From Halobacterium litoreum (GTDB taxonomy: Archaea > Halobacteriota > Halobacteria > Halobacteriales > Halobacteriaceae): a DNA stretch of 64,000 bases. Positions 3,911 through 19,230 of this stretch are shown here, piece after piece (positions within the stretch are counted from its first letter, which is position 1; each line of letters starts with the position of its first letter). The stretch covers positions 372,001-436,000 of the forward strand of contig NZ_CP089466.1 in the NCBI RefSeq assembly GCF_021233415.1. The letters run 5' to 3'. The translations under genes were made by a program, and so were the position numbers. Below the pieces are notes generated by a model. The model saw only the letters and a list, made by a program, of their open reading frames with translations, had not been told where the DNA came from and ran no database searches.

Positions 3911-4816
3911 ATGCGAGTCATCGTACACGGCGGCGCAGGCGGCAGTCCCGACGAACCGGAACCCCGGCAGGCGACACTCGACGAGGCGGCCGACGCGGGC
4001 GCGAGCGAGACCGACCCCGTGGACGCCGTCGAATCGGCGATTCGCGTGCTGGAAGGCGACGCGCGGTTCAACGCCGGGTCGGGCGGCGCGGTGCAGTCCG
4101 ACGGCGTGATTCGGACGGACGCGGGCGTGATGACCAGCGACCGGGAGGCCGGCGCGGCGGCGTCGATGCCGGGCGTCGAGGCCGCCGTCTCGGTCGCGCG
4201 TGCCGTGATGGAGGAGACGCCCCACGTCCTGCTGAACGGCGTGCACGCCGTCGACTTCGCGGCGGACGTGGGCGTGGACGTGGAGTGCGACCTCTGGACC
4301 AAGGACACCCGCGAGCGCTGGGACGACCTCGACGACCACCCCGAGGGCACGCCCACCGAGCACCTCGCGTGGATTCGCGACAAGTTCGGAGAAACGGACC
4401 CGGACGGACGGGACGAGGGTGGGGACGGCTACGAGAAGGACCACGACACCGTCGGCGCCGTCGCCTTCGACGGCGGCCGGTTCGCCGCCGCCACCTCCAC
4501 GGGCGGTCGCTGGCTGGCGCTCGCCGGGCGCGTCGGCGACGTGCCCCAAATCGGGTCGGGGTTCTACGCCGCGCCCGCCGGCGCGGCGTCCGCCACCGGC
4601 GCGGGCGAGGACATCGCGAAGACGACGCTCACGCGGCGCGCCGTCCGCCACCTCGAATCCGGGCTGGACGCCCAGCAGGCCGCCGACCGCGCCATCGAGG
4701 AGTTCGGCGAACTCACGGGGTCGTCGTCGGGCGTCATCGTCCTCGACGACGACGGGAACGCGGGGGAGGCGTTCAACTCCGAGCAGATGCAGACTGCGGT
4801 AGCCCGAACGGAGTGA
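3911..4816 (+). CDS. isoaspartyl peptidase / plant-type L-asparaginase (Ntn hydrolase)
   Basis: A 301-residue member of the T2 asparaginase family, which hydrolyses asparagine and/or isoaspartyl dipeptides from damaged proteins. The N terminus MRVIVHGGAGG and the block FNAGSGGAVQSDGVIRTDAG are family signatures. The autocleavage site is HDTVGAVA, making T180 the predicted catalytic N-terminal threonine after self-cleavage; the substrate-binding TSTGG and GSGFYA follow. The ATG at 3911 is chosen because MRVIVHGGAGG is the family start. The stop codon lies inside the first hairpin of the repeat array at 4797-4990. Confidence 0.93.
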   Translation: MRVIVHGGAGGSPDEPEPRQATLDEAADAGASETDPVDAVESAIRVLEGDARFNAGSGGAVQSDGVIRTDAGVMTSDREAGAAASMPGVEAAVSVARAVMEETPHVLLNGVHAVDFAADVGVDVECDLWTKDTRERWDDLDDHPEGTPTEHLAWIRDKFGETDPDGRDEGGDGYEKDHDTVGAVAFDGGRFAAATSTGGRWLALAGRVGDVPQIGSGFYAAPAGAASATGAGEDIAKTTLTRRAVRHLESGLDAQQAADRAIEEFGELTGSSSGVIVLDDDGNAGEAFNSEQMQTAVARTE

Positions 4817-4990
4817 GGGCTACCGGAATGTGCGAACGCTGAGCGAAGCGAGGCGTGAGCAGCGCGGTCTCGACCGTAGGGAGGGACCTCGTTACGGCGA
4901 GCGGGGAGCGCGTGCCCGACCGCAGGGAGGGCACGGGACGACGAACGGCGACCGGAGGGAGCCGCGAGCGTTCGAACGGAGCGAGCGAAC
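4797..4990. repeat. array of six stem-loops with near-constant 11-base loop and variable paired stems
   Basis: Six hairpins in about 195 bases, each with an 11-base loop close to GAVCGNAGNGA but different stems. Unit 1: stem CGGTAGCCC/GGGCTACCG (4797-4805, 4817-4825), loop GAACGGAGTGA. Unit 2: 4836-4840 with 4852-4856, loop GAGCGAAGCGA. Unit 3: 4866-4871 with 4883-4888, loop GACCGTAGGGA. Unit 4: CGTGCCC/GGGCACG (4911-4917, 4929-4935), loop GACCGCAGGGA. Unit 5: CGGC/GCCG (4946-4949, 4961-4964), loop GACCGGAGGGA. Unit 6: GTTCG/CGAAC (4970-4974, 4986-4990), loop AACGGAGCGAG. The first overlaps the end of the asparaginase gene. Function unknown; could be RNA-level structure, termination or a DNA repeat family. 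Confidence 0.7.
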
Positions 4991-5058
4991 CGGGCATGAG
5001 TGAGACGCCGATTTTGGTCCTCGTTGGCTTCTTCACTCGGGCGGGCGTGGGTCGTGGT

Positions 5059-5325
5059 ATGGCCTCTCGGTTGTTCTTCGACGGTAACGAACTAGATGTG
5101 GGCGCGGTGTGGCGCGAGGCGCTGCCGGTGGCGGCGCTGGTCGCGGCGTTCGGTGCGGCGGCGCTCGTGCCGGTCGCGTTGAACTGGCTGCTGGTGGAGA
5201 CGATGGGGTTCCTGTCGGTGTTCTCGGTGTTGCTCGGGTTCGCCAGCCAGTTCGTGCTCGCCGTCGGGGTGGGCGTAGTTCTGTTGTACGTGGTGGCACG
5301 CGGCAACGAAATAGCAGAAGCGTGA
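5059..5325 (+). CDS. small two-helix membrane protein, unknown function
   Basis: An 88-residue protein with a short polar N terminus (MASRLFFDGNELDVGAVWRE) and two predicted membrane helices: ALPVAALVAAFGAAALVPVA at about residues 21-40 and a longer hydrophobic run at about 50-80 ending VGVVLLYVVARG. The ATG at 5059 is preferred; an in-frame ATG at 4996 would add residues with no recognisable feature. The stop overlaps the start of the next gene (GTGA), so the two membrane proteins are probably co-translated. I do not recognise a named function; it looks like a conserved haloarchaeal family. Confidence 0.7.
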   Translation: MASRLFFDGNELDVGAVWREALPVAALVAAFGAAALVPVALNWLLVETMGFLSVFSVLLGFASQFVLAVGVGVVLLYVVARGNEIAEA

Positions 5326-5726
5326 CTCTCCACTCGCTCCTGTTCGGTCCCGACGAGACGCCGGTCACGCGCGGGCTTCCAGCCGTGCTCGCGTCGGCCG
5401 CGGGCTGCGCGCTCCTGATGGCGTGGACGCTGTCCGGGCAGTCCGGCGGCGTCGTCTTCCCGCTGTGGGCCGTCGCGGTCGGCCTCGCCGGGGGCTTCGG
5501 CTACGCGTACCGGTACGACGCGCTCGTCGTCTGCGTGGCCGTTGGCGTCGCCGCGTTCGCCGGGTCCGACCTCGGTTTCCACGCGATTCACGGCGGCGAA
5601 CCGGTCGTCGGAACCCTCGTGGACTTCGCGTCGGACCCGGAGCCGTCGGCGCTCGGCGCGCTGTTCGGCGGTGCCGGCGGCGTCGCGGGCGCGGCGGCGC
5701 GCCGGGTCGTCTCGCTCGTCCGGTAG
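5322..5726 (+). CDS. small multi-helix membrane protein, unknown function
   Basis: A 134-residue protein starting at a GTG that overlaps the preceding stop (GTGA). Predicted helices are LPAVLASAAGCALLMAWTL, VVFPLWAVAVGLAGGFGYAY, ALVVCVAVGVAAFAGSD and a C-terminal ALGALFGGAGGVAGAAARR. It has no catalytic motif I can recognise. Tight coupling with the 88-residue membrane protein suggests the two act together in the membrane. The methionine aminopeptidase gene follows 56 bases downstream on the same strand but is probably separately expressed. Confidence 0.7.
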   Translation: MTLHSLLFGPDETPVTRGLPAVLASAAGCALLMAWTLSGQSGGVVFPLWAVAVGLAGGFGYAYRYDALVVCVAVGVAAFAGSDLGFHAIHGGEPVVGTLVDFASDPEPSALGALFGGAGGVAGAAARRVVSLVR

Positions 5727-5782
5727 TCCGCCGTCGGGGGCGACCCACAACCTCTTTGCCGCGCTCGGGCGAATCCTCGGGC

Positions 5783-6673
5783 ATGACAGACAGCGTCGAA
5801 GTCGGTTCGGAGGCCTACGAGCAGTACGTGGAGGCCGGCGAGATTCTCACGCAGGTGATGGACGAGGCGGCCGACCGCATCGAGGTCGGCGTCACCCAAC
5901 TGGAGGTCGCGGAGTTCGCCGAGGAGCGCATCCGCGAACTCGGCGGGAAGCCGGCGTTCCCGGTCAACATCAGCGTCGACGAGGAGGCCAGTCACGCCGC
6001 GCCCGGCCGCGACGACGAGACGGAGTTCGGCGAGGAGATGGTGTGTCTCGACGTCGGCGTCCACGTCGACGGCCACATCGCGGACGCCGCGACCACCGTC
6101 GACCTCTCGGGCAACCCCGAACTCGTGGAGGCCGCCGAGGAAGCCCTCGACGCCGCAATCGACGCCGTCGCGCCGGGCGTCCACACGGGCGAAATCGGCG
6201 CGGAGATTCAGGACGTCATCGAGGCCTACGGCTACAACCCCATCGTGAACCTCACCGGGCACGGGATGGACGTGTACGACGCGCACACCGGGCCGAGCGT
6301 GCCGAACCGCGCGGTCGATACGGGCGTCGAACTGCAGGTCGGGGACGTGCTCGCCATCGAGCCGTTCGCGACCGACGGCACCGGAAAAGTCACCGAGGGG
6401 TCGGACACCGAAATCTACGAGGTCGTCGGCGAGGGGAACGTCCGCGACCGCCGCGCCCGCCAACTCCTAGACGACCTCGAAGCGTTCGACGGCCTGCCGT
6501 TCGCGGCGCGCTGGCTGGACTCCTCTCGGGCGGAGATGAGCCTGCGGCGACTGGAGATGGCGGACATCGTGCGCTCGTACCCGGTGCTGAAGGAGGCAGA
6601 GGGCAACCTCGTCAGTCAGGACGAGCACACGCTAATCGTCACCGAGGACGGCTGTGACGTCGTGACGAACTGA
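5783..6673 (+). CDS. map: methionine aminopeptidase, type II
   Basis: A 296-residue metalloprotease that removes the initiator methionine from nascent proteins. The five metal ligands of the pita-bread fold are visible: D90 (CLDVGVH), D101 (HIADAATT), H160 (LTGHGMD), E193 (AIEPFAT) and E281 (QDEHTLI). The roughly 60-residue insert between H160 and the C terminus makes it the archaeal/eukaryotic type II. The ATG at 5783 gives the normal N terminus of an archaeal enzyme without extension. It stands alone, with a membrane-protein pair before it and a converging zinc-finger gene after it. Confidence 0.95.
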   Translation: MTDSVEVGSEAYEQYVEAGEILTQVMDEAADRIEVGVTQLEVAEFAEERIRELGGKPAFPVNISVDEEASHAAPGRDDETEFGEEMVCLDVGVHVDGHIADAATTVDLSGNPELVEAAEEALDAAIDAVAPGVHTGEIGAEIQDVIEAYGYNPIVNLTGHGMDVYDAHTGPSVPNRAVDTGVELQVGDVLAIEPFATDGTGKVTEGSDTEIYEVVGEGNVRDRRARQLLDDLEAFDGLPFAARWLDSSRAEMSLRRLEMADIVRSYPVLKEAEGNLVSQDEHTLIVTEDGCDVVTN

Positions 6674-18945: not shown

Positions 18946-19040
18946 GCTTGAAGCGGTAGTATTCAGCGTCGTATCGTCTTCGGATACCATCCCGAAAGCC
19001 CCACCCTCAGCCGGGTGGTCAGCCGGTATCGGGTAGGACT

Positions 19041-19140
19041 GAAAGGGGCGAGGGGCTGCGGGAAGCCGGGCGAAGTAAGCACGCGACCATCGGGAGCGCG
19101 CGAAGCGAGCCCCGCGACCGCAGCCCCTCGGGGCTTTCGA
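19041..19140. repeat. long inverted repeat in intergenic region, possible structured RNA or MITE-like element
   Basis: A perfect 13-base inverted repeat, CGAGGGGCTGCGG (19049-19061) and CCGCAGCCCCTCG (19118-19130), encloses 56 bases. Flanking GAAA (19041-19044) and TTTC (19135-19138) can extend the stem. Inside the loop lie two motifs resembling the 11-base loops of the 4.8 kb array: GACCATCGGGA at 19085-19095 closed by CGC/GCG, and GCGCGAAGCGA at 19098-19108. No open frame of note occupies it. It sits between the propeller gene and the nucleoside phosphorylase. It might be a small RNA, a terminator or a dispersed repeat; I see no target-site duplication. Confidence 0.6.
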
Positions 19141-19230
19141 GGTGGTATTGACGGTTCCAACAACCGACTCTACACAGTTCCCTAGTGCGAATCCCGACTC
19201 TTTTTCTCGGGCTGTGTCGAACGGGCGTGC

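What the first reader, a model, noticed from the sequence alone, without database searches (positions are those of the whole stretch)
4797..4990. Six hairpins with a near-constant 11-base loop and covarying stems
Reading base by base gives six stem-loops in under 200 bases. Loops are GAACGGAGTGA, GAGCGAAGCGA, GACCGTAGGGA, GACCGCAGGGA, GACCGGAGGGA and AACGGAGCGAG. The stems differ (CGGTAGCCC, ACGCT, GGTCTC, CGTGCCC, CGGC, GTTCG), yet each pairs with its own partner (unit 2 and unit 3 each use one wobble pair). Constant loop with changing paired stems is the mark of selection on structure and on the loop bases. It is not a CRISPR array, whose repeats would be constant. I know of no name for this element; it could be an RNA- or protein-binding site, a terminator, or a dispersed repeat family. 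The intergenic element at 19.0-19.1 kb contains similar 11-base loops.
Basis: seen in the sequence. Interest (0 to 1): 0.65.

Follow-up and report, generated by a model that had tools for sequence, protein, structure and literature searches.

The report
Haloarchaeal GA-capped hairpin repeat arrays
The six hairpins belong to a large, apparently undescribed family of repeated DNA palindromes scattered between genes in haloarchaeal genomes, whose tip stays constant while the stem is rewritten from species to species but stays self-complementary.

Summary
Window 4797-4964 carries five in-register hairpins; the sixth (to 4990) is an out-of-register palindrome. The "11-base loop" is not open: it reads GA-x-C-GNA-G-x'-GA with x:x' covarying, i.e. 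a GNA triloop on two base pairs, then opposed GA/GA. All 242 haloarchaea searched carry the core pattern; the A:T form occurs up to 65 times per genome, reversed control ~0. In 2.0 Mb sampled, 109 of 114 hairpins are intergenic, with no orientation bias to genes (26 sense, 24 antisense), so the family is not a terminator or UTR element. A short form has a second GA/GA exactly 5 bp out (32/38, against 1/72 at other stem lengths). In seven congeners hairpin 1 keeps its place and 98.7% of its pairs while its arms differ at 48% of sites (adjacent coding 16%, core 0%), nearly always on both sides. In the short form G.T exceeds A.C 59:5, so pairing is kept on the purine strand. No Y1 transposase is in this genome or linked to the hairpins in congeners. 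Best reading: a core-chromosome, BIME-like palindromic repeat that works as a single-strand hairpin, more likely ssDNA than RNA, with arms rewritten by unit exchange or template switching. Function is unproven.

The parts
4797..4825 (+). long (L) hairpin 1: 9-bp stem, cap GA-AC-GGA-GT-GA; its cap supplies the TGA stop codon of the upstream gene
   Evidence: sequence; position and pairing conserved in 7 congeners
4832..4860 (+). short (S) hairpin: GC-GA-ACGCT-GA-GC(GAA)GC-GA-GGCGT-GA-GC, two GA/GA steps 5 bp apart
   Evidence: exact pattern match at G000:C1:376832-376860; rule tested
4866..4888 (+). L hairpin 2: 6-bp stem with one T.G, cap GA-CC-GTA-GG-GA
   Evidence: congener G023 has GGTTCT/AGAACC with x:x' G:C at the same place
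4911..4935 (+). L hairpin 3: CGTGCCC stem, cap GA-CC-GCA-GG-GA; part of a module repeated at dozens of places in congeners
4946..4964 (+). S-like hairpin: CGGC stem, cap GA-CC-GGA-GG-GA, outer GA/GA present (GACGA...GCCGCGAGC)
4965..4990 (+). degenerate sixth unit: palindrome GTTCG...CGAAC, out of register with the cap
3911..4816 (+). upstream gene, Asparaginase_2 (Ntn) family; ends ...ARTE* inside hairpin 1
   Evidence: Pfam PF01112 E 6.7e-64; orthologues
4996..5325 (+). downstream small ORF without Pfam match; absent at this place in G035 and G067, where the array abuts the M24 peptidase gene, and replaced by other genes in G094

Best explanation
The site is one array of a haloarchaeal interspersed palindromic repeat family. 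Shown: hairpins have a constant cap (opposed GA/GA, a 2-bp helix with covarying x:x', a GNA triloop) on variable perfect stems. There are two kinds, L (single GA/GA, usually 6-9 bp) and S (a second GA/GA exactly 5 bp out). In the best arrays L and S alternate on one strand with fixed linkers (about 60-65 nt per L+S). Arrays sit between genes without regard to gene direction. Pairing is kept on the purine (GA) strand. In the congeners checked they lie on the main contig only. Inferred: they act as single-stranded hairpins, more likely in DNA (lagging strand, repair or recombination ssDNA) than in RNA, because d(GCGAAGC)-type GNA minihairpins are exceptionally stable DNA and the arrays ignore transcription direction. 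Inferred: the arms are rewritten as a unit by exchange between copies and/or replication template switching, while the non-complementary GA/GA steps, which simple arm-copying would erase, are kept by selection for a structure read by an unknown hairpin-binding factor, or for the folded DNA itself. In function they would resemble REP/BIME elements, without a RAYT-type transposase.
For: Core pattern in 242/242 haloarchaea above reversed control; A:T form 7-65 per genome in most against ~0 control. Stems >=5 bp in 58 of 137 caps with x:x' paired against 2 of 61 unpaired, Fisher 1.5e-9; altered caps near 0. 109/114 intergenic, 26 sense against 24 antisense, 33 divergent, 19 convergent; 20 of 24 multi-hairpin regions on one strand. 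S rule 32/38 against 1/72, p 1.6e-20; S pattern in 106/234 genomes, control 0 in all. G.T:A.C 59:5, distinct sequences 42:5, p 2.5e-8. Orthologous hairpin 1 in 7 congeners: 98.7% cells paired, 8 of 11 pairs with double changes; arms 48% different, coding 16%, core 0%; 68 both-sided against 4 one-sided differences. Tips replaced by other palindromes in otherwise near-identical flanks, L266/L274 and L270/L277. All 92 hits of G067 and G349 lie on the main contig, ~14 expected elsewhere, p 6e-7. No TATA-like motif upstream of arrays. DNA minihairpin stability: PMC4686876. Template switching: PMC8794818.
Against: No experiment and no transcript data. G.T is tolerated in ssDNA and G.U in RNA, so strand-specific pairing does not separate the two. 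Copies are related, so pair counts are not independent. In L hairpins G.T against A.C is only 6:4. No association with replication strand was found once arrays are masked (Fisher 0.34). No binding protein or mobilising enzyme was identified. A few single hairpins with T-runs do look like RNA terminators.
Confidence: 0.5

Rival explanations
1. RNA elements: the GA-strand hairpins act in RNA (3'-end stabilisers or terminators, protein-binding sites, or independent ncRNAs).
For: G.T(U) far exceeds A.C on one strand. GNA triloops and opposed GA/GA also fold in RNA. About six single 6-7-bp hairpins are followed by T-runs, mostly downstream of a gene in sense.
Against: 26 sense against 24 antisense in tandem gene pairs, 33 hairpins in divergent regions; no TATA-like motif upstream of arrays; no Rfam match.
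Confidence: 0.22
2. A non-autonomous mobile element (MITE/REP-like) spread by a transposase in trans; arrays are insertions, including nested ones.
For: BLASTN finds 3-37 dispersed partial copies per congener genome in 12 of 13. A 60-nt L-S module sits exactly in the S loop (insert 63 instead of 3 nt) at five loci with differing host stems. Perfect 77-bp tandem array in L276.
Against: Y1 transposases (PF01797) are absent from this genome and from G127, G023 and G094, and are not near hairpins (1 found, 4.3 expected). No hits off the main contig of G067 or G349; 2 plasmid records, 0 phages. Positions persist between species. No clean filled/empty site pair was obtained.
Confidence: 0.18
3. Purely mutational palindromes: template switching makes and repairs perfect inverted repeats, with no selected function.
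For: Both arms change together, 68:4, faster than flanking coding DNA; known mechanism (PMC8794818).
Against: Opposed GA/GA steps and GNA are not complementary yet invariant, and would be erased by simple arm copying; strict 5-bp spacing in S; strand-specific G.T over A.C.
Confidence: 0.1

Closest known systems
Bacterial REP/BIME elements with RAYT transposases (PMC2817692)
   Same: High-copy intergenic palindromes, combined into modular arrays; pairing preserved through complementary changes
   Different: No GTAG head in the consensus; constant cap and variable stem; arrays on one strand rather than alternating; no RAYT/Y1 in this genome; archaeal host
GTAG/CGTC-tagged palindromic repeats (PMC3733652)
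   Same: Short palindromes found as singles, dimers and groups
   Different: Those are defined by a conserved tetranucleotide at one end; here the conserved part is the apex, GA-xC-GNA-Gx'-GA
d(GCGAAGC)/GNA DNA minihairpins (PMC4686876)
   Same: The commonest core GA-GCGAAGC-GA contains the published ultra-stable 7-mer (Tm 78 C) literally
   Different: That is a chemical and aptamer tool, not a described genomic repeat family in haloarchaea
Bacterial palindromes seen here with the same cap (Phycisphaerae MAG, DRR093004_bin.13, Acidobacteria gp5, Bacteroidales, Rhizobiales)
   Same: Same 11-nt cap in palindromes, multi-copy in some of these genomes
   Different: Different outer frames (for example TGTCATTGCGA..., CCTCTCCC...); the haloarchaeal S spacing was not seen in the copies printed
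Haloquadratum MITE, PATE and SMR elements (PMC3119063)
   Same: Transposase-free repeats in a haloarchaeon; PATEs have near-terminal palindromes related to IS605
   Different: Mobile, with IS605-type or unknown enzymes; sequences not compared here; our arrays lack any Y1 link

Membership tests
REP/BIME with RAYT (TnpA-REP) | extragenic, high copy number, palindromic | tested here: met
   109/114 intergenic; 112 core hits in this genome
REP/BIME with RAYT (TnpA-REP) | cognate Y1 (HuH) transposase in genomes rich in the repeat, flanked by it | tested here: not met
   no PF01797 match in G000, G127, G023 or G094; 1 hairpin near 23 Y1 loci, 4.3 expected
REP/BIME with RAYT (TnpA-REP) | GTAG (or CGTC) head tetranucleotide at one foot | tested here: not met
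   flank consensus of S is GCGA...GAGC, of L CG...CG; no GTAG in the consensus
REP/BIME with RAYT (TnpA-REP) | repeats in alternating orientation within arrays | tested here: not met
   20 of 24 multi-hairpin regions are all on one strand
Intrinsic transcription terminators | downstream of genes in sense, followed by a T-run | tested here: not met
   no sense bias; T-run after 7 of 102 hairpins; met only by a small subset
CRISPR array | near-identical repeats with variable spacers | tested here: not met
   stems vary, caps and linkers are conserved
Rfam RNA family | score above a curated covariance-model cut-off | tested here: not met
Classical MITE | terminal inverted repeats matching an autonomous transposon, with target duplication | tested here: inconclusive
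   no terminal repeat shared across copies was evident by eye; exact ends and target duplications not resolved

The most novel reading that the evidence does not exclude
A previously undescribed class of chromosomal element: strand-specific, single-stranded DNA hairpins with a fixed GA/GA + GNA cap and continually rewritten stems, limited to resident core chromosome, read by an unknown structure-specific factor (replication, recombination or chromosome organisation) in haloarchaea, with the same cap reused independently in scattered bacteria.
Probability: 0.3. Interest if true: 0.85.

Novelty: new variant of a known kind. Interest (0 to 1): 0.62.

Why it matters
The cap pattern is in every haloarchaeal genome examined, often over a hundred times, yet no name, Rfam model or paper with the sequence was found in the held library. 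It shows a rule opposite to most repeats (constant tip, free stem) and gives many natural examples of stems whose two arms change together, which bears directly on how palindromes and RNA stems evolve. If a factor reads the cap, it would be a new structure-specific system in archaea, and it is testable in Haloferax.

Tried and rejected
Terminator/UTR reading: rejected for the family by orientation and divergent placement. REP-RAYT: rejected, no Y1 in this genome and no linkage. Independent ncRNA genes: no upstream TATA-like signal. Replication-strand bias: an apparent link to GC skew disappeared when arrays were masked; an apparent run of + strand hits is a listing artefact. Plasmid or virus origin: almost no hits. 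Clean empty site for the nested module: L266/L274 looked like one, but the alignment of the repeat units is ambiguous, so it is not claimed. A first gene caller put genes on the wrong strand; it was retrained on acidic-protein ORFs, and only later results are used. Literature by sequence string and by topic: nothing describing the element.

Full report
WHAT IS THERE. Window 4797-4990 lies between an Asparaginase_2 gene (3911-4816, +; Pfam PF01112) and a small ORF (4996-5325, +). Five hairpins share one register, GA-x-C-G-N-A-G-x'-GA, on stems of 9, 5, 6, 7 and 4 bp; the sixth is a palindrome out of register. The TGA stop codon of the asparaginase is part of cap 1. Markov sequences of the same composition give 0.05 such hairpins per 64 kb, and the region folds at z -4.45 against shuffles.

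THE LOOP IS A CAP. In 464 kb of this genome and 762 kb of others (both strands), x:x' is A:T, G:C or C:G; T:A was not found. When x:x' pair, stems of 5 bp or more follow in 58 of 137 cases; when they do not, in 2 of 61; altered or reversed caps give almost none. An unbiased scan of all hairpins with stems of 8 bp or more ranks these caps first among 11-nt loops and GAA first among 3-nt loops. The structure is therefore stem / opposed GA-GA / two base pairs / GNA triloop. The commonest form, GA-GCGAAGC-GA, contains the DNA minihairpin GCGAAGC, Tm 78 C, with a G-A pair inside the loop (PMC4686876). That the GA/GA step is a sheared tandem pair is my inference from known chemistry; it was not tested.

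TWO HAIRPIN KINDS AND ARRAYS. Among 114 hairpins, those with exactly 5-bp stems carry a second GA/GA just outside in 32 of 38 cases; other stem lengths in 1 of 72 (background 1.7%). The short form S reads GC-GA-RCGNN-GA-xC-GNA-Gx'-GA-NNCGY-GA-GC. In the asparaginase arrays of congeners, long (L) and short (S) hairpins alternate with fixed linkers, about 60-65 nt per L+S. A 60-nt L-S module sits exactly inside the S loop (insert 63 instead of 3 nt) at five loci whose outer S stems differ. One array is a perfect 77-bp tandem repeat (L276). Some family members use other triloops (ACC, AAC, AGC) on the same GA/GA + 2 bp frame.

WHERE THEY SIT. In 2.02 Mb sampled, 109 of 114 hairpins are intergenic. 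Between co-directional genes 26 point with the genes and 24 against; 33 lie in divergent and 19 in convergent regions (gene calls from my own codon-usage caller, which places the window's genes correctly). Of 24 regions with two or more hairpins, 20 have all of them on one strand. No TATA-like signal precedes arrays. A small subset of single hairpins followed by T-runs does look like terminators.

HOW THEY EVOLVE. Hairpin 1 is at the same place in seven congeners: 98.7% of cells paired, 8 of 11 pairs with changes on both sides, against 27-44% paired when partners are slid. Arms differ at 48% of sites, adjacent coding at 16%, the constant core at 0%; 68 pair differences are two-sided and 4 one-sided. 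In two further orthologous pairs the hairpin tip is replaced by a different palindrome within nearly identical flanks. Arms seem to be rewritten as a unit, by exchange between copies or by template switching (mechanism in PMC8794818); this is inferred. The covariation is thus partly mutational. However, the GA/GA steps, which arm copying would erase, stay fixed, and in 150 listed S copies G.T exceeds A.C 59:5 (distinct sequences 42:5). That asymmetry means pairing is preserved on the GA strand. Copies are related, so the probability (2.5e-8) is optimistic. For L hairpins the count is 6:4, which is uninformative.

HOW WIDESPREAD. The core pattern occurs in 242 of 242 haloarchaeal genomes, in nearly all well above its reversed control; the A:T form reaches 65 per genome with a control of about 0, and is rare in the rest of the phylum. 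S is in 106 of 234 genomes, 40 of 72 genera, control 0. The cap also occurs in bacteria and is multi-copy in a few: Phycisphaerae MAG 28 against 0, DRR093004_bin.13 55 against 1, Acidobacteria gp5 21 against 1, Bacteroidales 9 against 0, inside other palindromes. Whether this is convergence or exchange is open. In G067 and G349 all 92 hits are on the main contig (about 14 expected elsewhere), and G349 has none between 0.88 and 1.74 Mb. That the other contigs are plasmids is inferred. Plasmid, phage and viral collections hold almost none.

MECHANISM. Best supported: an interspersed palindromic repeat acting as a single-strand hairpin. DNA is preferred over RNA because placement ignores transcription and the cap is a known ultra-stable DNA fold; this preference is a judgement. 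No Y1 transposase is in this genome, and none is linked to hairpins in congeners, so it works like REP/BIME elements in layout but is not a member of the REP-RAYT family. No function has been shown.

NOVELTY. No Rfam family matches, and no paper in the held library gives the sequence or describes the element; subscription papers were not searchable. I rate it a new variant of a known kind.

Noticed in passing
L054, L082, L100, L105, L130: Single 6-7-bp GA-capped hairpins directly followed by TTTT(T), mostly downstream of a gene in sense: candidate haloarchaeal intrinsic terminators using the same cap.
   Followed up: partly
window 4817-5783; L064, L065, L066: The interval between the asparaginase array and the M24 peptidase gene has different genes in different congeners (none in G035 and G067, two small ORFs here, other genes in G094): arrays may mark rearrangement-prone junctions.
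   Followed up: partly
G349:C1:884-1735 kb: About 0.85 Mb without a single A:T-type cap (about 14 expected by density); two Y1 transposase genes and a partial Y1 match lie in this stretch. Possibly a recently acquired region.
   Followed up: no
bacterial loci L139-L217: The same cap sits in several cross-phylum palindromes (TGTCATCCTGAGCGAA..., TGTCATTGCGA..., CCTCTCCCC...GGTGAGGGG), apparently also with nested GA/GA steps.
   Followed up: partly
L071 12610-12688: Two identical copies of a GA-capped hairpin 54 bp apart (a multiple of 3) inside a long predicted gene; one search lists a third cap at the same spacing.
   Followed up: no
window 18990-19150: GC-rich palindromic intergenic element with the string CGCGCGAAGCGAGC; no in-register cap. 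Not identified.
   Followed up: partly
L266 / L274 first hairpin: GCGGC-GCGCC(AAA)GGCGC-GCCGC against GCGGC-AGTCC(GCT)GGACT-GCCGC in otherwise nearly identical sequence: a palindrome tip swapped between two species.
   Followed up: partly
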